Assembly: GCF_000340215.1 (NCBI RefSeq)
Contig: NW_006921545.1
Span: 711,522 to 775,521 of the forward strand
Direction of reading: 5' to 3'
DNA from: Pseudocercospora fijiensis CIRAD86
Lineage: Eukaryota; Ascomycota; Dothideomycetes; Mycosphaerellales; Mycosphaerellaceae
DNA length: 64,000 bases
Part shown: one piece after another, positions 1 through 46,640 of the stretch
Layout: the number at the start of each line of letters is the position of its first letter
Position numbering within the stretch: position 1 is the stretch's first letter
The notes under the pieces: model-generated
Told to the model about the DNA's origin: nothing
Database searches by the model: none
What the model saw: the letters and a program-made list of their open reading frames with translations, nothing else
Translations under genes and position numbers: made by a program

Positions 1-984
1 TAACTATAGAAGCAATATTATACTAGATCTAGGCACTTTAGTTAGCGCCCTTATTAACTATCGCCTAGCTAAGCAATTATACCTCCGATAACTAAATAGG
101 ACTAATATACTAATCCTTGCTTAATTTAATAACGCTCGGTACTTAACCTATAGAGCCTACTATATTTATATAGTTCTAATAGACGACCTCGGTAATAAGC
201 GCCTATTAGACTTTACTACCTACGTAGTAGATATAGACAACCTTCTAGCTAACATTGTTCTTAGTAACCCTATTCTTAAGTAATACGCTATAACTGTAGA
301 CTTAGGCAGCTAATAGTAGCGATTTAGAATCGCTAGAAAGGAGGATGATAAATATATTAATATTAGCGAGTATCCTAATAATATTAAGGTTCTGTTTATT
401 AGCAACCTAATATACGCACTAGCCTCCGCCTTAGCTAATCCGACTACCGACCTACTCGGTAGTAATAACGATAAGCCTATAGCCCCTAATAGTATGTACC
501 CTAATTAGCTTCCTCGTATACCCTAACCTATTTAAGAAACCTATATTAAGGTATTTAAATACTACCTAGTATCGATATTGCCTATATTTAAAGAGACGGA
601 CTATAAGACTAATATTACAGAGAATAAGGAGGTTCCTTTCAGGCTACTCCACAACCTTAGTAACCGTAAGCTTGCTACACCACGCAAATACCTAGATAAG
701 TACCTAGCTAATAGTCGAATTTAGTATAGCAAAAGCCCTACTAGCATACTAACCTGCTGGTCCTGCTTGTTCTAAAGAAGGATAGTAGCCTACGCTTGTG
801 TATTGGTTGCCGTAGACTTAACGCTGTTACTATTAGGGACCGTTATCTACTTCCGCTTATTAATAAGACCCTCGATCGCCTATCTAGCGCCTACTTTTAT
901 ACTATATTAGATATTAAGGATACGTACTATCGTATCTGTATTCGTTAGGGCGACGAATAGAAGATAGCCTTCCGTACTCGCTAC
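1..984 (+). pseudogene. Gypsy-1a part 1: end of protease and N-terminal half of reverse transcriptase
   Basis: This is the pol region of a Ty3/Gypsy retrotransposon, broken by RIP stops. After about 600 the reading resembles the start of a Gypsy RT: a stretch like VDYRRLNAVTIRDRYPLP around 800-860 and an AFRTRY-like stretch just before 984. It aligns with the reverse complement of Gypsy-1b near 53990-54960; for example, bases 310-340 match the complement of about 54620-54650. By comparison with the 7.1 kb Gypsy-1b, roughly 1.8 kb (5' LTR, gag, start of protease) lies upstream of the window. The RT is interrupted at 984 by hAT-A and resumes at 15566. Confidence 0.85.
977..984. repeat. hAT-A target-site duplication, left copy (CTCGCTAC)
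   Basis: Identical to 15558-15565. Gypsy-1b has a single related octamer at the equivalent point of its RT gene. Confidence 0.88.
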
Positions 985-1004
985 TAGACCCTATAGTAGT
1001 TCGG
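985..1004 (+). repeat. hAT-A left terminal inverted repeat
   Basis: Twenty bases match the right end at 18 positions. Inside it, up to about 1100, are repeated subterminal motifs of the form GTTTAGTTTGCTAAG and GGTTGGTTTACTAAG. They have a counterpart at the right end (GTTTGGTTTCTTAGC, read inward) and are plausible transposase-binding sites. The same arrangement starts hAT-B at 43367 and the hAT-like end at 29373. Confidence 0.88.
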
Positions 1005-1319
1005 GTTAGTTTAGTTTAGTTTGCTAAGCCGAAGATCTAGTTTAGTTTAGGTTGGTTTACTAAGCAACTATAGGATTAGCTAGTTCGAACTATAGAATTT
1101 ATCGGTTTCTAAGAAGTATAAGAATGTCTACGTAACTCGAAGCAAGCCCTTTATAAGATACGAGAGTATAGCCGGTAGCGTAGCCGGTATTTTTCAGTTA
1201 TAGGAAGGTACTTATATAACCCTAAATCTATAGACAATTAGCTAAGGGCACTAACTAATTAAAAGCATATATATACATAAGCTATTATAGTTTAGTTTAG
1301 AAACTGTACTTATTAGGTA

Positions 1320-1860
1320 TAAATTTTATCCTTTCGCTCGCTATTTAATTCCCTAACTACTCGGTAGAATATTATTATCTAGATCTAGGTAGAACTTATT
1401 GATTTCCCTAGAAGCCCTCCTTAAAAAGTTCTAATACTTTCTAACTAAACCATTCTCTAATATTAAGTACTAGGATAGCTCCTCCCTAGGGATCGGTATA
1501 ATATATAAAAGAGCTATAAGGCAGCTCTATACAACGTTCTACTAGTTACTCGCTATACTAAGGCCGAATACTAGTTCGTTCCTTAGAACTCTTAGTTATT
1601 TAGGAGATATTAAGGGTAGGGTAGGCAGTAACTTTGTATTCTATAAGGAGGTAGAGGCTACTATAGAGGAGTCCTTTAACCTATAGAAGATAGTAAAAGA
1701 TATAGAGGCAGCTATAGGTCTAGGTACCTAGTTAAACTTCTAGTAGGTAGAGTATAAGGATATTTAGAGGGAGTGTTAGGTAGAGTTACGAAGGTAGGTA
1801 TATAATATAGTCTAGAAAATAGGGATAATGCCTATAACTATAAGCATTAGGCTCTTTAAC
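1320..1860 (+). pseudogene. hAT cargo gene Z, unrecognised, copy A
   Basis: This + strand reading frame near the left end has stops almost only at TAG/TAA positions explained by RIP of CAG/CAA. It is supported by hAT-B (about 43708-44240), where the same frame is kept with mostly conservative changes. Visible residues include a helical stretch around GRVGSNFVFYKEVEATIEES and then KIVKDIEAAIGLG. No family was recognised. It is transcribed opposite to the transposase. A TATA-rich run lies upstream at about 1265-1285. The start and end are not fixed. Confidence 0.4.
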
Positions 1861-2199
1861 CTTCCTTATTTTTCCCTGTTTTCTTTTTATAAAAATCCAA
1901 ACTAATACAAGTTAACCGGAATCTCTATCTTCTTTTAGTTCTTTAAAAAACCTAGTAGCGTAGCTAGTAGCGTAGCCGGTAGCGTAGCCGGCCTTTTTAC
2001 TCCTTAGTACTAACGGGATTTTCGAAGACTTCTATTCCGTACGGCTAATAAAGCATACTATACTCTATGTATATATACTTAGAGAGTATTTAGAGCGCGG
2101 TATATAGCGCCGTATAATAGCGGCTTATTTCGTATATAGAAAAGCGTATAGACGATACTACGAATATCCTTCCTACTAGAATATCTATCCTACCTAGTA

Positions 2200-2880
2200 C
2201 TATCTCGAATATAGATATTCTAGCCTTCTAGAATCTAATCGAGTACTTTAAAATCCTTCTCTATAATCGTTATACGCTTCGCGTAGATAGCTATAAGGTT
2301 AACCGCTAAAATAGTATTAGTATAGTCCGAAAAGAGGTAGAAGAGAAATATATATTCGATAATACGAACTAGGTAGGCTTCTATAGCCTCTTAAAGGGCG
2401 CCTATCGCGGAGGCTTCGAAGCGAAGGTCTAGTCTATAATCCTAGGTAATTTCGCGAATAAGTCGTTAGAAAGGAGCTTTACGGAGTAGGAGATTAGAAC
2501 CCTACTAATACTTCCGAATCTTACGGAGGGCTACGGCTAAAGAAGGATTAGTAAAAAGATAGTAAGAATGCCGGCTACGCTACCGGCTACGCTATTAGCT
2601 ATAAATAGGACTTACTTCCTAGGCGCTATCGACGCTTTATACGATTATTACGACTAGTAGTAGAAGCGCTATTCGTCGTCTTACGTAGAGCCTTATCCGC
2701 CGTTATCTTACGCGGAGCCTTACTCGCGACGCCCTTTCTAGTACCGGATCTAGCGGTAGTAGTAGCAGCCTTCTTACGTTAATATACTATACTCGTTCTA
2801 CTATTTCTAGTCTTATTACGACCCGTAGAAGTAGTAGGTCCCTTCTTAAGAGGCGTTGTAACTTAGTTAAGTAGACTCGG
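2200..2880 (-). pseudogene. Histone H3-like gene 1 (hAT-A copy)
   Basis: Read on minus, exon 1 (to 2616) encodes a basic tail with TRKGVASKAPRK, recalling the H3 tail motif ARKSTGGKAPRK. After an intron (2537-2615), exon 2 encodes the histone fold: ALRKIRKYQ, then RKAPFQRLIREIT, DLRFEASAIGAL, EAIEAYLV and AIYAKRITI. These match the order of H3 alpha-N to alpha-3 (VALREIRRYQ, RKLPFQRLVREIA, LRFQSSAIGALQ, EAYLV, AIHAKRVTI). Splicing joins G-A|CC to give GTVALRKIRKYQ in frame, as in canonical H3. A second intron probably sits after EAYLV, because TACTAAT and TTTTAG precede the next H3 segment; its donor is unclear. Stops are RIP-type. This is a nucleosomal or centromeric H3 relative carried by a transposon; its function is unknown. 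Confidence 0.82.
2537..2615 (-). other. Spliceosomal intron in H3-like gene 1 (copy A) with GC-rich motif
   Basis: The donor GTAAGT (complement at 2610-2615), the branch-like TTTTACTAATCC and the acceptor CTTTAG (complement from 2537) give a 79-base intron. Its removal restores GTVALRKIRKYQ across the junction. Inside it lie two CCGGCTACG-type units at 2573-2597. The hAT-B copy has the same 79-base length at 44904-44982. Confidence 0.8.
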
Positions 2881-2921
2881 TATTCTAAAAGTCGTCGAAT
2901 TAAGGAAAAAAGTACGTTATA

Positions 2922-3243
2922 AAGGTATACGAAGGCGCGCGCGGAGCGAGGGTATTACGGAGGTAGTAGATATAAAGCGTAGAGATATAGGTATCGATAC
3001 GAAGGTTAAATATAGCGAGAGAGGTAGTATCGCGGTATCGCTAGGCAATAGAGTAAGCGTCGCGTAAGCCTATATTATAGTAACGTTAGAGTAAGGAAAG
3101 AAGGTAGGTACGCCTAAAAAAGGCAGGTACGGCAAACTTTGAAATATAGCCGGTATATATAGCCGGTATAGTAGTAGGCGAAAGCCTCCTTTTAATAAAT
3201 AGCCGGCGTAATAATAGTATCCTACTATAGTGTAGATATTCTT
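2922..3243. other. About 320-base segment present in hAT-A, absent from hAT-B
   Basis: hAT-A and hAT-B align directly up to about 2920 and again from about 3244. The intervening segment contains a GC-rich run of CG alternation at about 2935-2950 and two TATAGCCGGTA units at 3144-3167. No clear inverted repeats or TSD were seen, so it may be a deletion in hAT-B rather than an insertion in hAT-A. Confidence 0.55.
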
Positions 3244-3411
3244 TAGTAATTCCCTTACTAGCTATAGTAATCTTATAAGTAACCTAGGCCTATTACTAGG
3301 AAATATAAGAAATATTAGGTAGGCTATACTAAACAAGCTAGTTATTTAGTAGGAAAAGGCCTACTAGCGTCTCTATATGCCGGCTACGAGTACCGGCTAT
3401 TGCTCTAAATT

Positions 3412-4121
3412 TAACTCCGCCCTATCTCGGAGGCTAAGGTACCGAGCGGAAACCCTATAGCTTATATTTTTTAGGTTGTCGCGGAACGCTTATAGGTAAG
3501 GTATTAGAAAAGAGTATAAAAAGTACGAGAAGAGTATCCTAGGATATAGGTCGTAAGTAAATAAGAGTAGTACGCCTAGTTATTTATATAGTACGTTACT
3601 CTATACGACTAAGAGGCTATATTATCTCGTGCTTCGCTTATAAGACCTCGACTCTACTAATATACTATTAATCTCCTCCTCGGTCGCTATCTTAATTCTT
3701 CTTCGAGTTACCGGACTTAATACGTATCTATCGCTATATAATAGCGCTACGTATTATAGGGAATTAACTCCGCCGTATCTTAAAGGCTAAGGTACCGAGC
3801 GGAAATCCTATAGCTTATATTTACTCGGTTGTCGCGGAGCGATTATAGATAAGGTATTAGAAAAGAGTATAAAAAGTACGAGAAGAGCATCCTAGGATAT
3901 AGTTCGTAAGTAAATAAGAGTAGTACGCCTAGTTATTTATATAGTACGTTACTCTAAATAACTAGGAGCCTATATTATCTCGTACTTCGCTTATAAGACC
4001 TCGACTCTACTAGTATACTATCGACCTCCTCCTCGGTCGCTAATACGCCATCTTAATTCTTCTTCGAGTTGCCGGACTTAGTACGTATCTATCGCTATAT
4101 AATAGCGCTACGTATTATAGA
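3412..4121. repeat. Tandem duplication of about 355 bases, two units
   Basis: Unit 1 is about 3412-3765 and unit 2 about 3766-4121. They share the start AACTCCGCC and the end ATAATAGCGCTACGTATTATAG, split here by differences at scattered RIP-type sites. hAT-B has a single unit (45461-45805), so the duplication arose after the two copies separated. Confidence 0.85.
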
Positions 4122-4430
4122 GAATCTCTCGTTAAAGTTTCTCTTTCGTAGGCTTACTATCTACCTCGTAGTATAGAGGATTAAAGTGCTAATACTAAAG
4201 AATCTCCTTATAGTTAGGATACTAGGGCTCCTTAGGACCTTTATATTTTAGGTCTAAATAGAGTCGCATTATAAACGTTCTATCGCCCTTTCGCTTACTA
4301 TCCGCTAGGTCGCGATATACGAAGAAACTAATCTAAATATAGCTCGTCTCTATAATAGCCGGGTAAATATAGAGCGCTAGGTTTCTACTTTGTACCTTAG
4401 ATTTAGGGACGGCGTAGAGATAAAATTAGA
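3412..4430 (-). pseudogene. hAT cargo gene Y, unrecognised, copy A
   Basis: This minus-strand reading, downstream of H3-like gene 2, contains RDLADSKRKGDRTFIMRLYL and then a YVALLYSDRYVLSPATR stretch. The frame is partly kept in hAT-B (45461-46085). Its 3' half has been duplicated in tandem here. A resemblance to the basic patches of fungal tyrosine recombinases was considered but is too weak to assert. It is unclear whether it is a separate gene or a C-terminal extension of the H3-like protein; an intron-like segment with the GC-rich motif (4436-4460) lies between them. Confidence 0.35.
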
Positions 4431-4519
4431 AATATAGCCGGCACCTATAGCCGGTAAAAGGATACGAAAATAGGCCTCCTTCTAGGTTAATCTAACGACT
4501 AAATACAATTTCTAACTAA

Positions 4520-5010
4520 TCCGCTATAATCCGACGCCGAATTTTAGCTAAAAGCTATATATCTTTAGTTTAAAGAGTAATCCGCTTCGTATAGATAGTA
4601 AGGAGGTTTAAAAGCTTAAGCTCGGTTACGAGAAATGCCTCCGTAGCTTCCTAAAGAGTACTAATCGCCTTAGCCGTAAATCGTATACTAGACCGAAAAT
4701 CTAATATAATTTCTCGGACGAGTCGCTAGAAGGGAGTCTTAGGGATTAAAAGCTCGGTCCCTCTTTTATCTTAGAATAGCCGGATCTAGCGAAGGGTAAT
4801 AGTACCTAGTTTAAAGCGCCGCTTCTTTATCGTCGAGTCCTGCCTTATTCCCTTTTTTTTAATAGAAAGATAACTTTTCTTTGCGATAGCCTTCGTCTAT
4901 CTACTCTTTTTAGCCTTCTTCTATCTACCTAAAGCCTTCTTATTTTTCGGTACTATTTTCCGAGGAACCCCCTTCCTTTATATATACTATAGAGAGTCTT
5001 ACTCTTCCTA
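4520..5010 (-). pseudogene. Histone H3-like gene 2 (hAT-A copy)
   Basis: The minus-strand frame starts with a lysine-rich tail (about 5010-4810; AKKS and IKKKGIRQDST visible). Then comes KKRRFKLGTITLR, equivalent to H3 HRYRPGTVALR, followed by GTELLIPKTPFQRLVREI (H3: STELLIRKLPFQRLVREI), IRFTAKAIST, EATEAFLVTEL, TIYTKRIT and TKDI..LLAKIRR near 4530. The order and spacing match the whole H3 fold. It differs from H3-like gene 1 in the alpha-N insert and in its tail, so the two are paralogues rather than a recent duplication. Both are on the transposase strand. The hAT-B copy is at 46190-46640. Stops are RIP-type. Confidence 0.8.
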
Positions 5011-5444
5011 TATCTCGTTCTCGCTACAGTCTCCTTATACTTAGCTAGCTTTACCCTTGCCCTTTAGGCTCTAAAGATATATATCTACGCGTTTAGGCGA
5101 CGAGGGTATATTAGTAGGATCTAGAAAAATAATAAGTATATAATCGTAAGGAGATATTTATACTTCTTACCTTCTAGAACAATTAGTCTTCTATTAAACC
5201 GCCTTAGTAGGCTATCGTTAGATTCGTATAAAGGATAGTAGCTTAAGGAAGAGGAGGTAGCCGGCTTAGGAAGGCCTAAAGAGGCGAATCCTTAAGGTAT
5301 ATTTGTCTTTAAGAATATAGGAAAAGGGAAGAAGGAGAGGAAGAGCGAATAGAGAATTAGAAATAGTCCGTATATAAATCGGGTAGGTTGCTATAGCAGC
5401 TAGTCTATTTAGGTCCTAGGAATTCGAAATATATTAAAGATATA

Positions 5445-5500
5445 TACCGGCTATATACGCTAGCTATATTACCTTCTACGTAAACGCTTTATCTCTTTAA
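5445..5500 (-). other. Probable intron with GC-rich motif upstream of H3-like gene 2
   Basis: On minus the segment begins GTAATATAGC and ends TTCCTAG, with TATAGCCGGTA at 5447-5470 in between. The hAT-B counterpart (47095-47117) keeps the motif. The flanking exons are not identified, so the splice call is weaker than for 2537-2615. Confidence 0.4.
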
Positions 5501-5649
5501 AGCTACTCTAAGCCTATATACGTTTCTACTTCTCGACCTAGTATCGACTTCTACCTCCGCCCTCCTTCTCTTCGTTATTGCTAATTAGGGTTTGCTTAGA
5601 CTAAATTTCGTATTCTCTTCGCGCTCTTAGGTTTTTTTAATCTTAAGGT

Positions 5650-8240
5650 TTTCTAATTCCTCGATTAAGTCCTTTAATATAATCTTTAGTATCCTACCTT
5701 AGCGACTCTAGTAGAGGAGATAGTATCGGAATACTATAATAGATTCGAATATAGTAGGCGAGTATATTCGATTAAAGCGGCCCTAGTAAAGAGCGATACT
5801 AAAAGACCTCTTATAGCCTATATCTACGCTCGGTATAGCGAGGACGTTCCGAGCGACCGATACTATCGTTATAAACTTAGGCTCTAACCGCTACTATATA
5901 GCGAGAATATCGTTTCCGAATTCGTCTAGAAGACTAGTAAGATCTAGAGATTATTAGCCCTCTTTCTAAGCCTACGGATTTAGTACTTACTCGCGCGCCG
6001 ATAGAGATCGAACTTTTCTTTATTTACTTTAGTAGTTACTTCCTCTTCTATCTATACTTTCTACCTACGAAATAGGTATAATATCGGAGCCTTCTAAACC
6101 TTCTTTTTCTTTATAGGAGCTATATTTAAACTACTTTCTTTCCGACGCTCGTAGAATATCTTTTCTAGAATAGTCTAGTAATACTTAGGCTATTCCTCGT
6201 CCCCCTTCTATTCTAGCTTCTACTAGTATATATCCTTTTCTACCGGGTTAAGTAAGTATATAACGCTATAGATAACCCCGAACGACTAAAAGGTAGTACT
6301 ATAATATTAATATAATATAGTATAGGAGGTATCTATAGCTTTCGTTATAGCTACTTTCTAGAGAACGCTCTTCTTAGCTAGCTTAGCTACGGTTTCCTCG
6401 AGCTCGTTAAAGAGCTAGTTATAGTACGTAAAGATAAGGTAGATCGTCGGTCCTTAGGTTCTTCTAATCGTAGTAGTAACCTTCGCGTAATGCTTGCTAA
6501 TATCTACGAGATACTCTACTTAGCGCTATTCGGCGGCGATAAGCCCGAGCTACTTAATACCCTTAGAACTCTAATAGATCTCGAAAGCGGTACGTAAAGT
6601 ATATCCCTTTATAACTCTATAAAAAGTCGAATCGAACCGGGTCTTAACGTCTTAGGGAAAACGGAGTAGGCGCTAAGGAGGCCGCTTTTACTATCGCTTA
6701 TTCTATACGATATTCTAGATATCGGTTTTAGGGCGCTCGATTAGGTTCTTTTAAATAGCCTCGAATTAGTTATATCTCTATAAGCTCGAGGTCGTATATA
6801 TTGCTAGACGACGAAGCTAGAGAAAATAAGTTAGAACTATACTAGGTTACCGGCTATAGGTACTAGCTATAGATAAAAGTTATACCTTATATAAAACGAG
6901 AGCGAGGCTCTCTACCTTATCTCGTCTTATTACTATAACGAGTATCTCGACTTTCGACTTTGCTTTATCCTTATCTAGGATCTTCTATTAGTCGTCGTTT
7001 AATAGTATAATTTTAAGCGTTTTAAAGAGGGCTCGGATCGCAATTTAAACTATATAAGCGAGGTAGGGAAACTTCTATAGGGATATAACTAGCAACGACG
7101 TCGGCTCCGATTTAATAGGGCTAGGGCTATTACTAGGCTCCTCTTTATCGTAATTATCGTACGTATTATCGTACGTATCCGGAATCGTAGCGAGCTTAAT
7201 ATTCGGAAGATTAAGCTAGATTATAGACCTTATAATCTCCTCTACGTATTCGACCCTATCGATACGATTAGTAATTTTAAAGATATATACGAGTGAATTA
7301 TATATATAACGCCTTATATAATGTTCGATTATTACTAGCGTTGTCCGTAGTAATCGAGATTAGTTTCGTTATCACGCTAACCCTATCTATTACCGTATAG
7401 ACAAGCTTCGCTAGATCCTTACTAGTATAGGAACCTAGAATTTTAGGGAATCTAATTATAAGTTTATAGAGTTTCTAATCCGAATTAATAAAGTATAGTA
7501 TAATCGAGAGGAAGGAGGCTCTTATAGTCTAGCTTAACTAGCTATCGATAGTAATAGCTACTCGGCGAGTATTATAGAGGATCTCCCGAATATCGTCTAA
7601 CGTAGCCTCTTTATTCTTTTCGAATATAATATACTATATTATAGCGCCGAGAAATAGGGGAGGGTAGTTTATAAGATATAGGTATGTCTTCTATTATCTA
7701 TATAGACTCCCTTTCGTAGAAGTCTTCCGAAAGACCGTTTATAGCTAGTATTTCGTTTGCTAGTTACTTAAAGTCTTCGGGGGAGAAATCGGTAGCCTTT
7801 AATCCTAGAGCTTCCTTAAGCGTAGCCTATAATAATTAGCTAGATCTCTACGGTTAATTAAAGTAGCCGGTAGCTATAGCCGGTAGCCGTAGCCGGAATT
7901 TTAGAAGACGTACCTCTTTCTAGAACGCTATATCTATATTAACCCTTCGCTCTCCTTCAGATTCCCGATATCGTTTAGAATAGAGATAGTTCGTAGGCAA
8001 TAAGTTCCTATTCCCTAGTTTTAGGTATTTTAAGATTAAACCGTAGAAGTTATAGACAATTACTAGTTAACCTTTAAGTCGAGAAGTCGTATAACGGTAT
8101 AATACCCTCTCTATAAAGAACTTCTAGAATATATCCGTTCGCTCCTTACTACCCTATCGCATCGAGTACTTCCGGAGTTAATACTCCTTCGAACGTAAGT
8201 ATAAAGGGAACTATATCTTATAGACCTATTAATTAAACTG
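5650..8240 (-). pseudogene. hAT transposase, RIP-degraded
   Basis: Read on minus from about 8240, a basic region (8030-8240) could be the remains of a BED zinc finger. The catalytic core follows: VAITIDSWLS (7531-7562), a stretch reading IIRFPKILGSYTSKDLAKL (about 7420-7480, Tyr replacing the usual His of the GxHT motif), then ITTDNASNN (7331-7354). Further on come an LRTAFEIY-like stretch, YYSTT and a VIYLLNP motif (about 6230-6300). The C-terminal hATC dimerisation domain reads SVARNVLAIPSVDIGYKRSFSIAL (split by a codon change; 5762-5870). At least one intron (6817-6885) is evident, and another is likely around 7850-7925. The domain order is that of fungal hAT transposases. Numerous TAG/TAA codons make it non-functional. 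Confidence 0.85.
6817..6885 (-). other. Intron in hAT transposase with GC-rich motif
   Basis: On minus the donor GTATAACT is at 6885, a TTCTAAC branch point and a pyrimidine tract follow, and the acceptor TCTCTAG ends at 6817; the length is 69 bases. Two CCGGCTA-type units lie at 6848-6870. The same intron is cut by the window end in hAT-D. Confidence 0.65.
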
Positions 8241-8689
8241 CTCGGTATACTTAGGTTTCTAAAGATACGCCTAGCTAGCCTTTTCGAAGATATCCGGGTT
8301 AATACTCGATATTCTTATATCTCCGAATAACCTTCTACTTAGACTCCGTAAAGGTAAGGACTAGGTAGTAGTACCCTATAATAAATTCCTACTACTAGGA
8401 TTCGGAGAGAATAAATCTAGCCCTAACCGTCGTTTAGGACTCGATAGGCTCGAAGGTAAGTATACGACCTCCTCTCGACGTTGTCGTAATCTCGCTCGTA
8501 TACTAGACTATTCCGACTATCGTCTCGTTATTACCCTTCCTAGTATAGCGCCTAGTATATATACAATATCGGTCGGTATATTTTAAAGTTTCGTATAGTA
8601 AGGTAAGGACTTAGGAGTAGTAGATATATACTAGTAGCTATAGGGAAGTACCCTTTCTTTTATAGTATCCTATCGTTAGGAATAGCTAG

Positions 8690-8815
8690 GTAGTAAATAG
8701 CTAGCTACCTTTTTTTGTTTCCTAGCTACCTAACTACTAGATTTTTTTTCCTAGCTACCCTAGCTAGCCTAACTACTAGAATTTCTTTCCTAGCTACCCT
8801 AACTACCTAAATTTA
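8690..8815. repeat. Short tandem repeat, about 45-base units
   Basis: Three imperfect units built around TTTCCTAGCTACC and AACTACTAGA lie between the transposase and cargo gene X. They are separated by T-runs. No coding sense was seen. Confidence 0.6.
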
Positions 8816-8824
8816 GCCTTCTAT

Positions 8825-9279
8825 ATAGCGGCGCTCTCCTACTAACGGAACCGAGCTACTATACTTAACGAATCTAAGCTCGTTTTTAGTCTTAATCTAT
8901 CCTCTTTCGGTATAAGATACTCGATAAGCAAATGCTTAGGCCGAGTCTAACTACGAAACCTAAGACTAACTAATAGCTCTATTAACTAATCCTAATCCTC
9001 GAACTCCTTCCGCTTTTTAGTAAAGACCTTAAAGAGCGCTTAAGCTTCGTCGGGTATCTACGGAGTAGTCGAGATAAAGTCGTATCGCTAAAATAGGTAA
9101 TCCTTCGGAGGCTTATATAGAGATTTAGAGAATTCTAACGCTAACCTATCCTACTAGTAGCTTAGATTCCGGATATAAGCCCTCTCTACCTTACTAAAGA
9201 TTTTATATAGTAGTAGTACTCTACCCTCGAGAAACGCTTTCTATTTAAGTATTAGTATCTACCGGCTACGAACGCCGGC
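8825..9279 (-). pseudogene. hAT cargo gene X, C-terminal part
   Basis: The minus-strand reading after an intron at 9241-9288 includes FLEGRVLLLYKIFSKVERAY, then PPKDYLF, RYDFISTTP and RPKHLLIEYLIPKEDRLRLK. It ends near 8825. Only RIP-type stops interrupt it over about 140 codons. The upstream part of the gene lies at 14212-15110, beyond LINE-1. No family was recognised. It sits upstream of and codirectional with the transposase. Confidence 0.45.
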
Positions 9280-9288
9280 TATATATAC
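9241..9288 (-). other. Intron in cargo gene X with GC-rich motif
   Basis: On minus it runs from GTATATATAG to TTAAATAG, 48 bases, with branch-like TACTAAT. Two CCGGC units occupy 9259-9281. LINE-1 inserted at the donor side, so its TSD overlaps the first bases of the intron. Confidence 0.55.
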
Positions 9289-9295
9289 CGAGTAT
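9280..9295. repeat. LINE-1 target-site duplication, left copy (right copy 14196-14211)
   Basis: The sixteen identical bases TATATATACCGAGTAT flank the element. The variable long TSD and the simple-repeat tail fit target-primed reverse transcription. Confidence 0.88.
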
Positions 9296-9333
9296 CTCTA
9301 TTATAGCCGACGGAGCGGGACCGAAGACGGAAA

Positions 9334-10620
9334 ATAGCAGCGAACAATTAGAGACGAAGGGAAGACAGTTAAGAAGGCAGGGAGGACGAATAGAAAGCAC
9401 TATATACTAGGGCAGAGGAGGTGCTAAAGGCGGAAGATAGAAGAACCCCTAAGAGGGCATATAGGATAATAATCTTAAAACTCCTTAGAGGACTAAAAGC
9501 AATCTACAACCAGGCAAGCTACGTAATTACAAAGGTAGCTAATATAGTCGTAGCAAAGATTACGAAGAAACAATAGGAGACAAGCCTAAACTACCGTACC
9601 TAGGCAGCAGTAGCTAGTTAGGAGGCGCTAAAACCCCCGAGGACAGTAGTCAGAGTCTATATTACGGACCTATAGGAGCAAAAGGAAATCTAAGGACTTA
9701 TAGGGAAAGAGATTGTAGAAAGAATTGCAGTTAAAGAGGTAATTAGGGCTAGGAACGAAGGTAAAGGGGTAATTAAGCTATTTACAGTACAAGAGCAGGA
9801 CAAAAAGAAGCTAGAAACACAAAAAGAATAGACAACCAAGATAGGGAAAACAGCAAAGGTCTCTTAATAGCAGTTTATAATTATAGCCTATAGTATAATA
9901 AGAAGCTTTAAGGAAGAACGGGATATTAAGAGCCTATAGAGACAAAACCAAGCTATATACCTAGGCCTAAAGATTATAAAAGTAGTATAGATTAAAAGGA
10001 AAATCGAAGAGACTAAGAAGCAGTCTTCCCTAATTATCTAGGTAGGGAGTATAGAGCAAGCTAATATAGTGCTAGACTAAGGGTTGTTCTAGGACTTTAA
10101 AAGATTAGAAATAGAGATATATAGAAGCAACTATAGGATAATGCAGTGCTTCAAATATCAACACTATAGACACTTAGCAGCTAAGTATATAAAGACAACT
10201 AACACTTACTCCTATTATATAGGGGATTACTAGGTTAAAGAATGCAAAGTATATAAGGGAGAAGCAAGATGTGTATACTACACTAAAAGACACCCCTCTT
10301 AGGCGAAGGAATGCCCGGTAAGAATATAGGCAGCTAGGAAGGCAAAAGAAGCTAGAATTAATATACTAAAAAGATATACAATAAGCTAGGGCAGCTAGGT
10401 ACAGAAGCAACCTAGCTAAGTGCTACAAAAGAGGTCTAGGCAAGATAAGGGGTTTACATTTAGGGCCTTACTAGCATAAGAGAGTTACTAGCAACTAGGG
10501 AGACTAAGATACCTTAATATTATAGGAAAGGAAGCAGGGCAGACAAAGCTTAGTCAAATGTTAGTCTAAAGTAAGGGAAGACTAAAGGAAAACTTATAGG
10601 GAAATAATATAGATAAAACC
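9334..10620 (+). pseudogene. LINE-1 ORF1, gag-like protein with zinc knuckles
   Basis: The frame starts at ATA (9334), which is ATG in LINE-2 and LINE-3, only 38 bases from the element's 5' end. About 10145-10330 encode three Cys/His clusters (CFK-Y-Q, SYYIGDY-VKEC, VYYTKRHPS-AKEC in the partly mutated form), as in ORF1 of Tad1/I-type LINEs, where they bind the element RNA. Lys/Arg-rich stretches surround them. Interrupted by RIP-type TAG/TAA, many at the same positions in all three copies. Confidence 0.8.
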
Positions 10621-10639
10621 TAATAAACATTGCAATATT

Positions 10640-13600
10640 ACTAAATATTATATAGTACAATGTCAATAAGAGCAAAGATAAGGTATAGAGGAGCTTCCTT
10701 TAAGCACTAAACCTAAAAGAACATTACATTATTGCAATCTAAGAGCCCTAGCTCAACCTATATATAAAGAGACTAGCAATAGTTAAAGACCTAAGATACT
10801 ACCTAATTATCTATAACTAGGGAGCCCTAAGGACATACATCTATATTAGTAAGGAGATAGATACAGAAACCTAGTAGGCTATACTATAGGAGGATAGGGA
10901 CCTAACATTAGTTTAAGTAGAGACATCCTAAGGTATACTCTAAGTCTACTACATATACAACCCACTACTAGACTTAAGAAGCAGTACCTAACTGAAAACC
11001 CTTGAAAGACTACCTAGAGTTATCTAGGGGAACACCTACTAAATCCTACTTAGGGATTTCAACCTCTACTACCCCCTCTAAGGCTTAGACTTTACCCTAG
11101 CTTACTACTTCCTAGCAGGAAGACTGATTAATATATTAGAGAGGGAAGGAATAGAAATTGTTACCCTAAAGGGACTAATTACTTAGGAAGCAAGAGGAAG
11201 CAGTAGCATACTAGACCTATGCTTTATATTACATTAGATTAGGAATAGGATTATAAGATACAGGGTTAACTAGGAACTAGAAGAATTATTAGACTACTTC
11301 CCGGTACAGATTGAGCTAAATGTCTAAGCTAATTAGGAAAGGGAACTAGAGGAGAAGCTTAACTAGAAAGGTACTAAATAGGGCAGGATTAGGGAGGAAC
11401 TAGAAAGGGACCTAAAACTAGAGGAACTCTTAATAAAGCACCTACTAAGGCTAAAGGACATTAACAAGGCAGTAGAAGAACTAATAGGAATCCTAAAACA
11501 AGTAGCTAGAAAGTATACCCTAGCAAAGAAACATTTACAGTACTAGTAACTATACTAGACTAGTAAGTATATAAGGAAGGTTAAAGTAGTAAAGAAGGCT
11601 AGGAGGTAGTAGATACAAACCTATACCTAGGAAGCATAGGACAACTATAATAAAGCCTACTAGGAAAAGAAGATCTAGATTAAGAAAGATAAGATACAAG
11701 AATAGAGATCTACAATAGGAATAATTACAAAGAAACTAGAGGAGATGTAGAGGATAGCTAAATAGGCAAGGAGGCCTAAATAGGAAAAGAATATACTACT
11801 ACAATTCCTAGACATTATAGACTAATAAGGACAAATATAGACTATAATAGAAGGGAAAGCAAGAGCCCTAGGCTAACACTTCTTCTATAGAAAAGTATAA
11901 GCAGACCTATTAGATATAAAGGAGGAAGAATAAGAGACTCTACTACTAGGCACACTAAGAGACACCTAGGTCAAACCCGAAACTATTAAAAGGATCCTAA
12001 AGAAAATTCTAGGCAATAAGGCACTAGGAGAAGACAAGATCTATAACAAACTTCTAAAAGCATATAGGAAGGGGCTAGCCCTAGCACTAGCTAATATCTT
12101 TTTATAAAGCCTAGCACTAGGACACTACCTAAGACTATTTAGGAAGTCCCTAACAGTAGTACTAAGGAAGCCCTAGAAGGAAGACTATATACAGCTTAAG
12201 GCCTACAGACTAATAGCCCTACTTGATATAATAGGCAAGGTGCTAGAGAAAATTGTCGCTAAAAGGCTAATAACCTTTACCGAGGAAAGGAACATCCTTC
12301 CTAAAGGCTAAATAGGAGGAAGAAAGAAGAGGTTAATACTAACAGCTATAGAACTAATTATAGAACAGATTAAGTATATCTGGTACTATAGTTAAAACTA
12401 GGTAGCAACCCTCCTCTCCCTTAACATCTTAGGAGCCTTTAACAATATCTCCTATAAAAGACTCCTATATATACTTAAATAGAAAGCTATACTAAACTAG
12501 ATAGTCCAATTTATCCAGTCCTTCCTATAGGAAAGATCGACACAGCTTATTCTAGGCAAATTCAAATTAGACCTAATGCTAACTAAAAAGGGAATCCCCT
12601 AAGGATTAATACTCTCCCTAATCCTCTTCCTTATCTTTATAGTAGACCTACTCCTACTCCTAGAATCAAAAAACACATTAGCATTAAGGTTTGTAGATAA
12701 CACAAATATCCTAGCCTAGTCTAAGATAATAGAAACCAACTGCAAGATCCTAGAAGAGAAGCACTAGAAGTATAAAAAATAGGTAAAGAGGTATAGAGCA
12801 AAATTCGCCCTAGAAAAGTACTAGCTTATCTACTTTAGTAAGGCTAAATCAACCTATAATATAAAGCAATCAATCACTATCTAAGGCTTTAAAACCTAAC
12901 TATTAGCAGAGCTTAGGGTACTAGGGATCTAGCTAGATCCAAAACTGAATTAGGGACTATAAGTAAAGAAGGCAAAGCAGAGGGCAGATACTAATATGCA
13001 ATCTATTAATAGACTTATAGCCTCTATATAGGGGGCTACATTCGAGAAAGCTAAAGTTATATACAAAGCAATTGTTAAGCTAGCAATGCTATATAGAGTA
13101 TAGATATAGACAGCCTAGGAGAAAATACTAAGGAGGATTAAGCAACCAGTTAGTAGGTCCTAAACCTAAAGCCTAAAGAAAATCCTAGGAGCATACAAAA
13201 CTATACTAATAAGGGTAGTAGAAATGGAATTAGGGATCCTACTAGTTAAACAATACTTTAAGGGACTAAGACACTAATATGCGGCAAAGACAATAGAATA
13301 CCTAGTCTAACAGACTATCTAAAAGGCACTAGACAAGATAAAAGCCTAGTATATTAGGACTAGGAGGCGAGACAGACTATAAATAACTCCCTAGAAAGTT
13401 AAAGACCTAGAGCAATATAGAGTCTTAATAAGAGAAATGCTAGAGAAAGAGCTTTAGGGACTAAATATAAGGCTAAAGGAAGACAAGCTAAAGGGAGAGA
13501 AACAAAGCCTAGTAGAGTCAATTACTAGACACCTATAGGAGCAGGAATAGAACAAAACACAAGTTAGACTAGGAACCCTAAAGGTACTAATCAAATTTAG

Positions 13601-14150
13601 TTAATATAACTACTAGCTCTATAAGGACCTAAACAGGGCCGAGGCAAGCCTAGCTATCTAAATTAGATCTAAACACATTAGACTTAGGTCTTACCTATTT
13701 AGAAGAAACGTCCTAGGAATTGAAAGTAGAGCGTACTAATATAGCTACTAATCTTAGAACCCTAAGTATATACTACTAGTCTGCCCTTAGTAGTTAGAAG
13801 GCAGAAGTAATTAGAGACTAAAAGCAATAGAAAGGGAATACGATAAGCTAATCTAGAGCAAAGAAGACCTAAAGAGGATAGTAAAGTGGATTATTAAATA
13901 GGGATTTATACAACAATTCGCACTAGTAAGGGAAACTAAGGAGTAGATAAGAAGGAGGGAAGAAGAGGGGGAAAGAAGGGCAGGGTAGTAGGCAAGGTAG
14001 TTAGAGGGTAACAACTATAACACTAGTATACCCTAGAGGAAGGAAAACAAGGAAACGAGGAAGATTAACACTTATAAATAGGATAGGAGGGAGGTTTTTA
14101 CTAACTAAGTTGGTTTCCTACCTAAAACAATACATAGAAACAGACCTACA
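10640..14150 (+). pseudogene. LINE-1 ORF2, endonuclease and reverse transcriptase
   Basis: The N-terminal part (about 10730-11330) fits an EEP-type endonuclease: an LLQSKSPSST-like start and a G-D/F-N...P-type stretch near 11040-11090. The RT follows (about 12170-12760): LIALLDIIGKVLEKIVAKRL, then GGRKKR, and FVDN at 12690-12701 in place of the FxDD catalytic motif, so the second Asp is lost. A C-terminal region resembles LNRAEASLAI....HIRLRSYLFRR and an IESRAY-Y..NPKY..LVCP Cys cluster, typical of Tad1-clade ORF2. No RNase H was recognised. Confidence 0.82.
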
Positions 14151-14211
14151 TAGGCCGAAAGGCACTACAACAGGCAAATGAAATATCTATCTATCTATAT
14201 ATACCGAGTAT

Positions 14212-15110
14212 AGAAAAATTACCTATACCCCTTCCTCCTTTAGTAACACTTCTACCGTCCCTAGATACCTAGCCCCGATCGTATTAATCGTAAGCTACTT
14301 TGCCTTTATAGACGTAAAGGCTTCGCTCTAATACTAATAAAGAAACTTCTACTCTATATCGAGGATATAAAGACGACTAGTCTCGATTCTAATCCTTACT
14401 AGCTTTTCGTAGTAGCTTTTACTATAATTTTCTAGATTAATAGGACTTATACCTTAGCCCTTTACTAGTATCTCGTCTCTTTAACTATACTCGATCTACT
14501 CCTAGCGCTTATCGTCTATAGCGTTAGGCCCTAAGACTATATCTATTACTAGATTAACGTGTAGTATCTCCTCGCTTTTTTAGTTCCTTTATTCGTAGTA
14601 TTAAGCTCTATCGCGGTATCCTAAACTCTAGTATTATTGTTCTCGGCTATCTAAATATCTCCGTTACTATCGGTCGTATCGATAGAGATAGCGGCTATAG
14701 GTCTAAGTACTATTAGTTAACGTCTTAAAGAAAAATATGCTAGCTATAGCTACTAGCTACGGCCGCTAGCTAGATTAACTTGCACTACTAGAACTTTACG
14801 CTCGAAAACTAGCCGCAATTCTTTCCTCCTCTTAGCCTTCTCTTAGGTTGTCTTCTTATTCTAACCTTTACTTTTTTCTATAGGCGCTAGCTATCGATAG
14901 AATGCCTTATTCCGCGCCTTTCTTCTCTTATCCTTAGCTCTTTTATCCTTATCTATCTTCTCCTTTCTCTCGCGGTCTCGTACGGAATTCTTCTTCGTAG
15001 AGTACTCCTCTTTAGTCTTGCGCTTTTTAGTTAGACGCTTAGGCAAAACAAACTCGCGGTCTTTAGTTCTATCTTCTATTTAGCGCGCGGCGCGCTTCTC
15101 TCTTACTATT
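14212..15110 (-). pseudogene. hAT cargo gene X, N-terminal part
   Basis: The minus-strand reading begins with an extremely basic region (about 15080-14890), including KRLTKKRKTKEEY and RERKEKIDKDKRAKDKRRK, reminiscent of a bZIP basic region or a nuclear-localisation tract. It continues after a probable intron near 14720-14770 with LVIDIVLGPNAIDDKR and INLENYSKSYYEKLVRIRIE to the LINE-1 insertion. Together with 8825-9279 it would make a protein of roughly 400 residues. No domain was recognised; a DNA-binding role is only a guess from its charge. Confidence 0.45.
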
Positions 15111-15255
15111 ATAAGGAAAAAAGGCGGGGGCGTAGCGTATAGTAGTTATTATCGGTATAGGTATAGAGGAAGAAGTTAAAAGGTATAAGAATATCGCGAA
15201 GCCCTAATTGTTGCCGCCTACGTAACGTTATATAGGTAAGCTTTCGTAACTACGG

Positions 15256-15335
15256 CAACTACGCCCCGGTAATAGTAACTACGCCCTAGTAGTAGCAACT
15301 ACGCCCTAGTAACGGCAACTACACCCTAGTAACGG
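15256..15335. repeat. Subterminal tandem repeat, four 20-base units
   Basis: Four consecutive units are of the form CAACTACGCCCTAGTAACGG, with a few C/T and G/A differences, about 220 bases inside the right end of hAT-A. Subterminal repeats are common transposase-binding regions in hAT elements; that role here is inferred. Confidence 0.75.
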
Positions 15336-15537
15336 CAATAGAGCGTAGTCAATATAACCTAGTAACTATTATAGCCGGTAATCGTAGCCGGCAGTCTAAT
15401 AAGAGTGTCCTTATAGTAAAACCAATATAGTCTCTAGTTTAAACTAGGAATCTATATAGTTCGAAAAGACCAAACCGGAACTAGGGAGCTAGTTCGCCGC
15501 TAAGAAACCAAACTATATACGTTTAGTAGTTCGGAAA

Positions 15538-15557
15538 CCGAACTACTACGGGGTCTA
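15538..15557 (-). repeat. hAT-A right terminal inverted repeat
   Basis: Reads CCGAACTACTACGGGGTCTA on +, the complement of the left end except for two RIP-type differences. It is followed by the second CTCGCTAC (15558-15565). Confidence 0.88.
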
Positions 15558-15565
15558 CTCGCTAC

Positions 15566-31320: not shown

Positions 31321-31327
31321 GAAGAAA

Positions 31328-32620: not shown

Positions 32621-32639
32621 ACATTATAATATTACTGAA

Positions 32640-36140: not shown

Positions 36141-36203
36141 GCATAGGCCGAAAGGCACTAAAACAGGCAAATGAAATATCTATCTATCTATAATACCGCT
36201 ATC

Positions 36204-37870: not shown

Positions 37871-37906
37871 ACTTAACCCCCTAATTATATAACTAGTTAC
37901 GGAAAA

Positions 37907-39300: not shown

Positions 39301-39319
39301 TATTACTAAACATTATATA

Positions 39320-42820: not shown

Positions 42821-42875
42821 CGAAAGGCACTACAACAGGCAAATGAAATATCTATCTATCTATATAACGTCTGCT

Positions 42876-43280: not shown

Positions 43281-43707
43281 AATAATACGAGAATAATACT
43301 AATACTACTCGAGAAAGTCTATCTAATCTATCGTACCGATACTAATAGAACTAAAGCCGATAAAATTAGACTCCGTAGTAGTTCGGGTTAGTTTAGTTTG
43401 GTTTGCTAAGCCGAAGATATAGTTTGGTTTAGGTTGGCTTGCTAAGCAACTATAGGAGTAGCTAGTTCGAACTATAGAATTTATCGGTTTCTAAGAAGTA
43501 TACGAATATATACGTAACTCGAAGTAAGCCCTCTATAAGATACGAGAGTATAGCCGGTAGCGTAGCCGGCATTTTTTAGTTATAGGAAGGTACTTATATA
43601 ACCCTAAATTTATAGACAATTAGCTAAGGGCACTAACTAATTCAAAGCATATATATATATGCTATTATAGTTTAGTTTAGAAACTGCACTTATTAGGTAT
43701 AAATTTC

Positions 43708-44240
43708 ATCCTTTCGCTCGCTACTTAATTCCCTAACTGCTTAGTAGAATATTATTATCTAGATTTAGGTAGAACTTATCGATTTCCCTAGAAGCCTTCC
43801 TTAAGAAGTTCTAGCACTTTCCTACTAAACTATTCTCTAATATTAAGTACTAGGATAGCTCCTCCCTCGGTATCGGTATAGTATATAAAAGAGCTATAAA
43901 GCAGCTCTATATAACATTCTACTAGTTACTCGCTATACTAAGGCCGAACGCTAGTTCGTTCCTTAGAACTCTTAGTTATTTAGTAGATATAAAGGGTAGG
44001 GTAGGTAGTAACTTCGTATTATATAAGGAGGTAGAGGCTACTATAGAGGAGTCCTTTAACCTATAGAAGATAGTAAAAGATATAGAGGTAGCTATAGGTC
44101 TAGGTACCTAGTTGAATTTCTAGTAGGTAGACTATAAGGATATTTAGAGGGAGTATTAGGTAGAGTTACGAAGGTAGGTATATAATATAGTCTAGAAAAC
44201 AGGGATAATGCCTATAACTAGGAGTATTAGGCTCTTTAAC
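43708..44240 (+). pseudogene. hAT cargo gene Z, copy B
   Basis: Same + frame as at 1320-1860, with GRVGSNFVLYKEVEATIEES and KIVKDIEVAIGLG. Keeping one frame over about 170 codons in two independently mutated copies is the main evidence that it once coded. Confidence 0.42.
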
Positions 44241-44569
44241 CTTCTTCCTTTTTCCTTATTTTCTATTTATAAAAATCTAAACTAATACAAATTAACTAGA
44301 ATGTCTATCTTCTTTCAGTTCTTTAAAAGACCTAGTAGCGTAGCCGGTAGCGTAGCCGGCCTTATTACTCCTTAGTACTAACGGGATTCTCGAAGACTTC
44401 TATTCCGTACGCCTAAAAGAGTATACTATACTATATATATATACTTAGAGAGTATTTAGAGCGCGGTATATAGCGCCGTATAATAGCGGCTTACTTCGTT
44501 TATAGAAAAGCTTCTAGATAATACTAAGAACATCCTTCCTACTAGAATATCTATCCTACCTAGTACTAT

Positions 44570-45270
44570 CTCGAATATAGATATTCTAGCCTTTTAGAAT
44601 CTAATCGAGGGCTTTAAAATCCTTATCTATAATCGTAATACGCTTCGCGTAGATAGCTATAAGGTTAACCGCTAAAATAGTATTAGTATAGTTTAAAAAG
44701 AGGTAGAAGAGAAATATATATTCGATAATACGAACTAGGTAGGCTTCTAAAGTCTCTTAAAGGGCGTCTATTACGGAGGCTTAGAAGCGAAGGTCTAGTA
44801 TAAAATACTAGGTAATTTCGCGAACAAGTCGTCGGAAAGGAGCTTTACGGATTTAGAGATTATAGTCCTTCCTAATACTTCCGAATCTTACGAAGAGCTA
44901 CGGCTAAAGAGGGATTAGTAAAAAAACAGTAAGAATACCGGCTACGCTACCGGCTAAGCTACCGGGTATAAATAGGACTTACTTCCTAGGCGCTATCGAC
45001 GCTTCGTACGATTATTACTACTAGTAGTAGAAGCGCTATTCGTCGTCTTACGTAGAGCCTTACCTACCGTCGTCTTACGCGGAGCCTTACCTACGACGCT
45101 CTTTCTAGTACTAGAGCTAGCGGTAGTAGTAGTAGCCTTCTTACGTTAATATACTATACTCGTTCTACTACTTCCGGTTTTATTATAATCCGTAGAAGTA
45201 GTAGGTCCCTTCTTACGAGTCGTCGTAACTTAGTTAAATAGACTCGGTATTATAAAAGTCGTCGAATTAA
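44570..45270 (-). pseudogene. Histone H3-like gene 1 (hAT-B copy)
   Basis: Here the tail is closer to canonical H3 than in copy A: STRKSVVGKAPRK, then KALRKTTNSAS (about 45020-45110), against ARKSTGGKAPRK and KAARKSAPS. The intron at 44904-44982 is conserved in length and splice signals. Exon 2 continues into the H3 fold down to about 44580, with the same probable second intron. The two copies differ mostly at RIP-type sites. Confidence 0.8.
44904..44982 (-). other. Intron of H3-like gene 1 (copy B) with GC-rich motif
   Basis: GTAAGT donor and CTTTAG acceptor on minus, 79 bases, with CCGGCTACG, CCGGCTAAG and a third CCGG unit at 44938-44965. Confidence 0.78.
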
Positions 45271-45460
45271 GGAAAAAAGTGCGTTACGAAGTAGTAATTC
45301 CCTTACTAGCTATAGTAATCTTCTAAGTAACCTAGGCCTATTACTAGGAAATATAAGAAATATTAGGTAGGCTATACTAAACAAGCTAGTTATTTAGTAG
45401 GAAAAGGCCTACTACTGTATATATATACCGGCTACGAGGGCCGGCTATCGCTATAAGTTT

Positions 45461-46085
45461 AACTCCGCCCTATCTTAGAGGCTAAGGTACCGAGCAGAAA
45501 TCCTATAGCTTATATTTACTCGGTTATCGCGGAGCGCTTATAGGTAAGGTATTGGAAAAGAGTATAAAAAGTACGAGGAGAGTATCCTAGGATATAGGTC
45601 GTAAGTAAATAAGAGTAGTACGCCTAGTTATTTATATAGTACGTTACTCTATACGACTAAGAGCCTGTATTATCTCGTAGTTCGCTTATAAGACCTCGAC
45701 TCTACTAATATACTATCGATCTCCTCCTCGGTCGCTATCTTAATTCTTTTTCGAGTTGCTAGACTTAGTACGTATCTGTCGCTATATAATAGCGCTACGT
45801 ATTATAGAGAATCTCTCGTTAAAGTTTCTCTCTCGTAGGCTTACTATCTGCCTCGTAGTATAGAGGATTAAAGTACTAATACTAAAGAATCTCCTATAGT
45901 TAGGATACTAGGGCTCCTTAGGACCTTTATATTTTAGGTCTAAATATAGAGGTATTATAAATGTTCTATCGCCCTTTCGCTTACTATCCGCTAGGTCGCG
46001 ATATACGAAGAAACTAATCTAAATATAGAGCGCTAGGCTTCTAATTCGTACCTTAGATTTAGGGACGGCGCGGAGATAAAATTAG
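45461..46085 (-). pseudogene. hAT cargo gene Y, copy B
   Basis: Single-unit counterpart of 3412-4430. A short deletion near 45945-46040 removes part of the region that reads IETSYIQISFFVYRDL in copy A. Unrecognised. Confidence 0.33.
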
Positions 46086-46189
46086 AAATATAGCCGGTAT
46101 CTATAGCCGGTAAAAGGATACGAAAATAGGCCTCCTTCTAGGTTAATCTAACGACTAAAGATAAATTCTAACTAATCCGCTATAAACGG

Positions 46190-46640
46190 ACGCCGAATTT
46201 TAGCTAGAAGCTATATATCTTTAATTTAAAGAGTAACCCGCTTCGTATAGATAGCAAGGAGGTTTAAAAGCTTAAGCTCGGTTACGAGAAATACCTCCGT
46301 AGCTTTCTAAAGAGTACTAATCGCCTTAGCCGTAAATCGTATACTAGACCGAAAATCTAATATAATTTCTCGGACGAGTCGCTAGAAGGGAGTCTTAGGG
46401 ATTAAAAGCTAGGTCCCTCTTTTATCTTAGAATAGCCGGATCTAGCGAAGGGTAATAGTACCTAGTTTAAAGCGCCGCTTCTTTATCGTCGAGTCCTACC
46501 TTATATCCTTTTTTTAAAGAGAAGAATAACTTTTCTTCGCAATAGTCTTCGTCCGTTTACTCTTTTTAGCCTTTTCCTATCTATCTAAAGCCTTCTTATT
46601 TTTTAGTACTATTTTCTAAGGAACCCCCTTCCTTCGTATA
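46190..46640 (-). pseudogene. Histone H3-like gene 2 (hAT-B copy)
   Basis: The histone fold spans about 46462 down to 46190 (GTITLR, GTELLIPKTPF-RLVREI, KAISTL, EATEAFLV, TIYTKRIT). The Lys-rich tail lies upstream to about 46640. Same family and orientation as 4520-5010. Confidence 0.78.

What the first reader, a model, noticed from the sequence alone, without database searches (positions are those of the whole stretch)
2200..5010. A hAT transposon carrying two different histone H3-like genes
Minus-strand frames at 2200-2880 and 4520-5010 follow the full H3 fold in order (GTVALR, PFQRL(V/I)REI, SAIGAL or KAISTL, EAYLV or EAFLV, AI(H/Y)AKRIT). The first also has an H3-like tail. They lie inside an element with clear hAT ends, 8-bp TSD and transposase, and both recur in hAT-B. 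I know of no established hAT cargo of this kind. A transposon-borne H3 could mark its own chromatin, influence integration or interfere with silencing; those roles are speculation.
Basis: partly seen in the sequence, partly recalled or inferred. Interest (0 to 1): 0.92.

Follow-up and report, generated by a model that had tools for sequence, protein, structure and literature searches.

The report
RIP-killed hAT transposon carrying histone H3
A fungal jumping gene present in hundreds of dead copies carries two different histone H3 genes; this was published in 2019, but one of the two appears to have introns and both look once functional, which the published account did not say.

Summary
The window lies in a 73.9-Mb fungal genome, by size and H3 location almost certainly Pseudocercospora fijiensis (inferred). 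A hAT element runs 985-15557 (9.7 kb plus a nested LINE), with 20-bp inverted ends, a perfect 8-bp TSD, a related empty site, a weak but repeated transposase match, and two minus-strand H3 genes. Both genes exceed Pfam's Histone cut-off here and in the second copy (43367-47140).

It is not new. Dhillon et al. 2019 (PMC6710886) described this family: 784 H3-like copies in 471 hAT elements, RIP-inactivated. Manning et al. 2013 (PMC3538342) described an H3-carrying hAT in Pyrenophora. 'No established hAT cargo' is therefore wrong.

What I add: the two H3 genes are as unlike each other (41 of 78 core residues identical) as each is unlike host H3. Gene A appears to have two introns, so the published 'intronless transcript' fits only gene B; the published 16-residue insertion looks like a 48-nt intron. 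In a RIP-blind comparison of subfamilies, gene B's core diverged about five times less than the spacer between the genes. Codon-position bias supports selection in two of three subfamily comparisons, not the third. What the genes did is untested.

The parts
985..15557 (.). hAT element (9,693 bp net of the nested insert)
   Evidence: 20-bp TIRs, 8-bp TSD, related empty site; lengths of 7 fetched TIR-bounded copies 9,565-9,934 bp
977..984 (.). left target-site duplication CTCGCTAC
   Evidence: identical to 15558-15565
15558..15565 (.). right target-site duplication CTCGCTAC
985..1004 (+). left terminal inverted repeat
   Evidence: 18 of 20 bases match the right end; the pattern occurs 761 times in the genome at up to 1 mismatch, 0 in the reversed control
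15538..15557 (-). right terminal inverted repeat
2616..2772 (-). H3-A tail exon (start uncertain)
   Evidence: best hits are H3 tails, but weak, E 0.18; net length a multiple of 3 in 55 of 56 copies
2537..2615 (-). H3-A putative intron 1
   Evidence: GTAAGT 47 of 47, CTAAT 46 of 47, TAG 47 of 47; GT 56 of 56 and AG 56 of 56; tail and core lie in different frames
2354..2536 (-). H3-A core exon 2 (VALR to EAYLV and on)
   Evidence: 36 of 60 residues identical to host H3, no gaps; Pfam Histone
2306..2353 (-). H3-A putative intron 2 (48 nt; the published 16-residue insertion)
   Evidence: 48 nt in 56 of 56 copies; ends AG in 56 of 56, begins GT in 23 of 56
2244..2305 (-). H3-A core exon 3 (NLIAIYAKRIT...), 3' end uncertain
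4516..4974 (-). H3-B, intronless: lysine-rich tail (start uncertain) and full core 4803-4516
   Evidence: Pfam Histone 72.4 bits; PDB H3.3 E 1.4e-24
7334..7606 (-). part of the hAT transposase
   Evidence: tblastn with hAT transposase ORFs of the same genome: best E 1.2e-4 here and 3.7e-7 to 2.7e-5 in the 7 other elements, 8 of 8 matched
9328..14205 (+). nested LINE-like retroelement inside the hAT
   Evidence: RVT_1 5e-15; copies at 31324-36198 and 37899-42866
43367..47140 (.). second, truncated copy of the element
   Evidence: 89-93% identity over its aligned pieces
44566..45267 (-). H3-A in the second copy
46156..46664 (-). H3-B in the second copy
53993..54001 (-). empty target site in a related repeat
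   Evidence: both flanks of the hAT align to it, meeting at the duplicated 8 bases

Best explanation
A RIP-killed copy of the published P. fijiensis hAT family that carries histone H3. Shown: one 9.7-kb TIR- and TSD-bounded element with transposase remains, H3-B and H3-A, all on one strand, the two H3 genes repeated together across copies and three subfamilies. Inferred: the two H3 genes came from separate or very old acquisitions. B fits a processed copy; A appears to carry two introns, one a codon away from the host's second H3 intron. Both stayed protein-coding parts of the element while its subfamilies diverged; RIP then broke the copies. Most likely working (inferred, weak): when the element was active, its genes supplied variant H3 to the host's chromatin. 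In this RIPped copy B's tail shows no recognisable ARKS-type motif (motif recalled), the kind that silencing enzymes modify, so B may have diluted or blocked silencing of the element.
For: Published match in length, TIR length, TSD, two H3 copies per full-length element and the 16-residue insertion. 148 of 150 scored Histone matches in the genome (772 candidates) contain stops; the other two are host H3 and host CENP-A. Element and empty site. Introns. Core aa identity: host-A 47 of 81, host-B 43 of 83, A-B 41 of 78. RIP-blind purine/pyrimidine differences, S1 vs S2: H3-B core 11 of 288, H3-A core 27 of 239, spacer 198 of 1047 (Fisher p 4e-12 and 0.005); codon positions 1+2 18 of 351 vs position 3 20 of 176 (p 0.012). 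H3-B core vs spacer: S1-S3 6 of 288 vs 82 of 904, S2-S3 7 of 288 vs 185 of 846. Core length constant: H3-B 58 of 59, H3-A exons 2 and 3 each 55 of 56.
Against: Between S1 and S3 there is no codon-position bias (positions 1+2 13 of 344, position 3 6 of 170). The tails differ more evenly by codon position (S1-S2: B 4, 4, 4; A 3, 4, 3). The putative introns diverged even less than the exons (1 of 126), which neutral introns should not do; gene conversion between subfamilies could explain low-divergence patches. S2 and S3 rest on 5 and 2 copies. Intron 2 begins GT in only 23 of 56 copies, all in S1, and its 48 nt keep the frame, so it could be a plain insertion. No transcript, no intact copy, no other species compared here. 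The anti-silencing role has no direct evidence.
Confidence: 0.65

Rival explanations
1. Published view: a histone H3 transcript (retrocopy) was captured by the hAT, present once or twice per element, and amplified as a passenger; the copies never mattered and RIP killed them.
For: H3-B is intronless; the authors found exon-exon junctions without introns in ten near-full-length copies. No codon-position bias between S1 and S3.
Against: H3-A's tail and core lie in different frames joined by GTAAGT...TAG in 47 of 47 copies; A and B share only 41 of 78 core residues; B's core diverged about five times less than the spacer.
Confidence: 0.25
2. The low divergence of the H3 segments reflects gene conversion or mosaic recombination between element subfamilies rather than selection on the proteins.
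For: Low divergence also covers the putative introns (1 of 126) and a stretch upstream of H3-A; no codon-position bias between S1 and S3.
Against: Codon-position bias between S1 and S2 (p 0.012) and between S2 and S3 (positions 1+2 15 of 345, position 3 15 of 170), almost no frame-breaking length changes in the cores, and retention of the H3 fold at 52-58% identity to host H3.
Confidence: 0.25
3. Chance resemblance produced by biased RIP composition.
For: The composition is extreme: CpA 0.06 of expectation over 2051-8500.
Against: Pfam E 5e-20 and 2.6e-15, in 4 of 9 frames scanned, one per gene per window copy; 148 further matches with stops in the genome.
Confidence: 0.01

Closest known systems
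H3-carrying hAT family of Pseudocercospora fijiensis (Dhillon et al. 2019, PMC6710886; parts 1-5 of 7 of the text read; supplements not seen)
   Same: Evidently the same family and genome: about 9.5-9.9 kb, 20-bp TIR, 8-bp TSD, two H3-like copies per full-length element, the second with a 16-residue insertion, CpA-to-TpA RIP, one intact three-exon host H3 on scaffold 6.
   Different: The paper concludes that an intronless transcript or retrocopy was captured. Here H3-A appears to have two introns, A and B are as unlike each other as each is unlike host H3, and both look selected before RIP.
H3L hAT element of Pyrenophora tritici-repentis (Manning et al. 2013, PMC3538342; passages seen)
   Same: A hAT with transposase plus a divergent H3 gene between its TIRs, 26 copies. 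Its Figure 5 legend mentions introns in ESTs aligned to the element; which gene they fall in was not seen.
   Different: 5.6-kb and 2.3-kb forms, one H3 gene, copies nearly identical, with ESTs; Dhillon et al. found no nucleotide similarity to the other six species' elements.
Fungal DNA transposons encoding TET/JBP dioxygenases (Kojima 2025, PMC12730594; abstract and 'histone' passages seen)
   Same: DNA transposons, hAT included, carrying chromatin- or DNA-modification genes thought to counter silencing.
   Different: An enzyme, not a nucleosome component; a different gene family.

Membership tests
hAT superfamily | 8-bp target-site duplication | tested here: met
   perfect here; perfect in 5 of 7 other TIR-bounded copies, absent in 2 (L011, L014)
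hAT superfamily | terminal inverted repeats | tested here: met
   18 of 20 bases; 761 genome matches, 0 in the reversed control
hAT superfamily | hAT transposase | tested here: inconclusive
   weak tblastn match, best E 1.2e-4 here, in 8 of 8 elements; no Pfam transposase domain in this copy; the paper reports a hAT domain in 277 of 471 elements, DUF659 but no dimerisation domain
histone H3 | Pfam Histone over cut-off with H3 as best solved match | tested here: met
histone H3 | canonical N-terminal tail | tested here: inconclusive
   A: best hits are H3 tails at E 0.18; B: lysine-rich, only loosely aligned to the H3 tail
CENP-A (CenH3) | longer loop 1 than H3, as in the host CENP-A (four extra residues) | tested here: not met
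   A and B have H3-length loop 1
processed H3 retrocopy | no introns | tested here: inconclusive
   H3-B meets it; H3-A does not
Dhillon 2019 hAT family | length, TIR length, TSD, two H3 copies, 16-residue insertion, same genome | tested here: met
   the paper's TIR letters were not seen, and the species is inferred

The most novel reading that the evidence does not exclude
The hAT element encoded its own pair of H3 variants, one keeping an H3-like tail and introns, the other with a lysine-rich tail lacking the canonical modifiable motifs. Selection kept both because altering the nucleosomes of the element's chromatin helped it transpose or escape silencing. With the Pyrenophora case, transposon-encoded histones would be a recurrent anti-silencing strategy in fungi.
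Probability: 0.22. Interest if true: 0.8.

Novelty: already known. Interest (0 to 1): 0.35.

Why it matters
The phenomenon is in print, so its discovery value is low. The added points would change how the published case is read. If one H3 gene has introns and both were under selection, they were working parts of a transposon rather than an accidental retrocopy. That makes 'can a transposon carry its own histone, and why' testable in relatives with less RIP.

Tried and rejected
Pfam scans of the rest of this copy (5050-9326, six frames; 985-2199, four of six frames; 14206-15557, six frames), stops read as X, gave no transposase domain, only two sub-cut-off matches to unrelated families. Genome searches with DUF659 and the hAT dimerisation domain gave 21 and 47 matches. 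By eye, against the 150 H3 places only, none lies where this element's transposase should be; the nearest (C8:2981575, 4.8 kb off; C9:3351552, 8.3 kb off) are on the other side of the H3 gene. The protein database search with H3-B gave 16 candidates and none at E 1e-10; I did not test whether that database holds fungal H3, so this says nothing. The purine/pyrimidine comparison of host-A, host-B and A-B by codon position (positions 1/2/3: 19/8/24, 20/13/23, 20/14/25) leans towards constraint but cannot separate changes on the host branch. CENP-A identity was considered and rejected. Chance was rejected. Literature searches: (one search found no paper). Of the papers these listed I saw titles and abstract starts, plus parts 1-5 of 7 of PMC6710886, passages of PMC3538342, and abstract and passages of PMC12730594; in what I saw, none reports introns in the P. 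fijiensis transposon H3 or selection on it. Only open-licence full texts are held. Confidence in selection was lowered slightly (0.70 to 0.65; novel case 0.25 to 0.22; gene conversion 0.20 to 0.25) on rechecking, because the S1-S3 comparison shows no codon-position bias. Dropped before counts: loci L002-L008 (same places as L017-L023), L016 (a 3.96-kb piece at one TIR end, without H3 match and not used further), BLAST matches under 600 (A) or 440-450 (B) bases, and for the spacer test the S1 copies outside 1,200-1,300 bases (18 S1, 5 S2 and 2 S3 copies used). Subfamilies were assigned by best BLAST match of H3-B to the window or to L018, and S3 (L057, L058) by hand.

Full report
The window is C14:711522-775521 of a 73.9-Mb, 30-contig genome. 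The genome's size, its H3-like repeats, and an intact three-exon H3 gene on contig 6 match P. fijiensis as described by Dhillon et al.. The sequence is heavily RIPped: over 2051-8500, CpA is 0.06 and TpG 0.08 of expectation.

Element. A scan for an 8-bp duplication next to inverted ends gave one clear pair, 985 and 15557, flanked by CTCGCTAC. The flanks 18-983 and 15556-16589 align to two adjoining stretches of one related repeat at 54944-52965, which is the empty site. A 4.88-kb LINE-like insert with a reverse transcriptase sits at about 9328-14205; without it the element is 9,693 bp. The TIR pattern occurs 761 times in the genome at up to one mismatch, and never in the reversed control. Seven copies chosen only by TIR spacing (7 of the 8 such pairs I saw in the partial list) all carry both H3 genes between their ends; 5 of 7 have perfect TSDs and 2 have none. 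The transposase is badly decayed: Pfam finds nothing, but hAT transposase ORFs from the same genome (one of 805 aa without stops, one 694-aa piece; both loci found by the hAT dimerisation domain) match the minus strand at about 7606-7334 in this and 7 other copies.

Histone genes. H3-B (minus, about 4974-4516) matches PDB H3 over its whole core and loosely over part of the tail (E 1.4e-24) and Pfam Histone at 72.4 bits. H3-A (minus, about 2772-2244) scores 57.2 bits. Both have the H3-length loop 1, while the host's own CENP-A (L037) has four more residues there. H3-B scores 80.9 bits against host H3 and 65.5 against host CENP-A, and H3-A exon 2 scores 77.0 and 50.4; the short exon 3 of H3-A scores slightly higher against CENP-A, 28.1 against 25.8. 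In the core, host-A, host-B and A-B identities are 47 of 81, 43 of 83 and 41 of 78, so the two genes are not a recent tandem duplication.

Introns in H3-A. The tail and the core lie in different frames. Between them, 79 nt in this copy begin GTAAGT and end TAG; this holds in 47 of 47 copies, and GT/AG in 56 of 56. Splicing there would give R-L-G-T-V-A-L-R. The site is one codon from the host's second intron and in the same phase. A second stretch of 48 nt interrupts the core where H3 has no residues. It ends AG in 56 of 56 copies, begins GT in 23 of 56, and carries CTAAT before its end in 47 of 47. This is evidently the published '16-residue insertion'. Intron 1 is well supported, intron 2 less so. 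H3-B has neither. The published statement that the captured copies lack introns therefore fits B but not A.

Were they functional? Fifty-nine copies of H3-B and 56 of H3-A fall into three subfamilies (S1, S2, S3: 52, 5 and 2 by H3-B). To avoid RIP, which makes only transitions, I compared purine/pyrimidine classes. Between S1 and S2, H3-B's core differs at 11 of 288 sites, H3-A's core at 27 of 239, and the spacer between the genes at 198 of 1047; H3-B core against spacer is 6 of 288 and 82 of 904 for S1-S3, and 7 of 288 and 185 of 846 for S2-S3. Within cores, positions 1+2 against position 3 differ at 18 of 351 and 20 of 176 for S1-S2 (p 0.012) and 15 of 345 and 15 of 170 for S2-S3, but 13 of 344 and 6 of 170 for S1-S3, which is no bias. 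Core lengths are constant in 58 of 59 (H3-B), 55 of 56 (H3-A exon 2) and 55 of 56 (exon 3) copies, and the H3-A tail length is a multiple of three in 55 of 56. Against selection, the putative introns differ at only 1 of 126 sites, less than the exons, the tails show no codon-position bias, and within-S1 differences in the H3-B core are too few to use (positions 1/2/3: 6, 2, 5). Selection is the better reading, but gene conversion is not excluded.

Known or new. Dhillon et al. 2019 reported 784 H3-like copies in 471 hAT elements of P. fijiensis and the same event in five relatives. Manning et al. 2013 reported a hAT with an H3-like gene in P. tritici-repentis. The finding is already known. The introns in H3-A, the depth of the A-B split and the RIP-blind evidence for constraint appear to be additions; I did not see them in what I read of the papers listed.

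Noticed in passing
9328-14205, 31324-36198, 37899-42866: Three copies of one LINE-like element (about 4.9 kb, about 95% alike) with strong A-over-T skew; the stretches holding them are less CpA-depleted than the rest. One is nested in the hAT.
   Followed up: partly
3411-3764 and 3764-4125: A tandem duplication of about 360 bp in the spacer between the two H3 genes, present in some element copies and absent in others.
   Followed up: no
1180, 1965-1990, 2575-2600, 3140-3165, 4440-4460 and elsewhere (by eye): A dispersed short motif, TAGCCGGTAGC-type, recurs through the element and seems to make up the length variation of the putative intron 1 of H3-A.
   Followed up: no
H3-A tail exon, about 2720-2650 (L023 and others): A 27-nt in-frame insertion in 21 of 47 copies repeats a KAPRK-type tail unit, so the transposon H3 tail varied by whole repeat units.
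   Followed up: partly
spacer upstream of H3-A, about 2900-3250: A stretch with few purine/pyrimidine differences between subfamilies although not recognisably coding; a promoter or further exon of H3-A is possible.
   Followed up: no
G000:C1:8853279-8853651, C2:175136-175503, C2:581713-582085: Pairs of the same TIR only about 370 bp apart: possible short, non-autonomous derivatives of the hAT.
   Followed up: no
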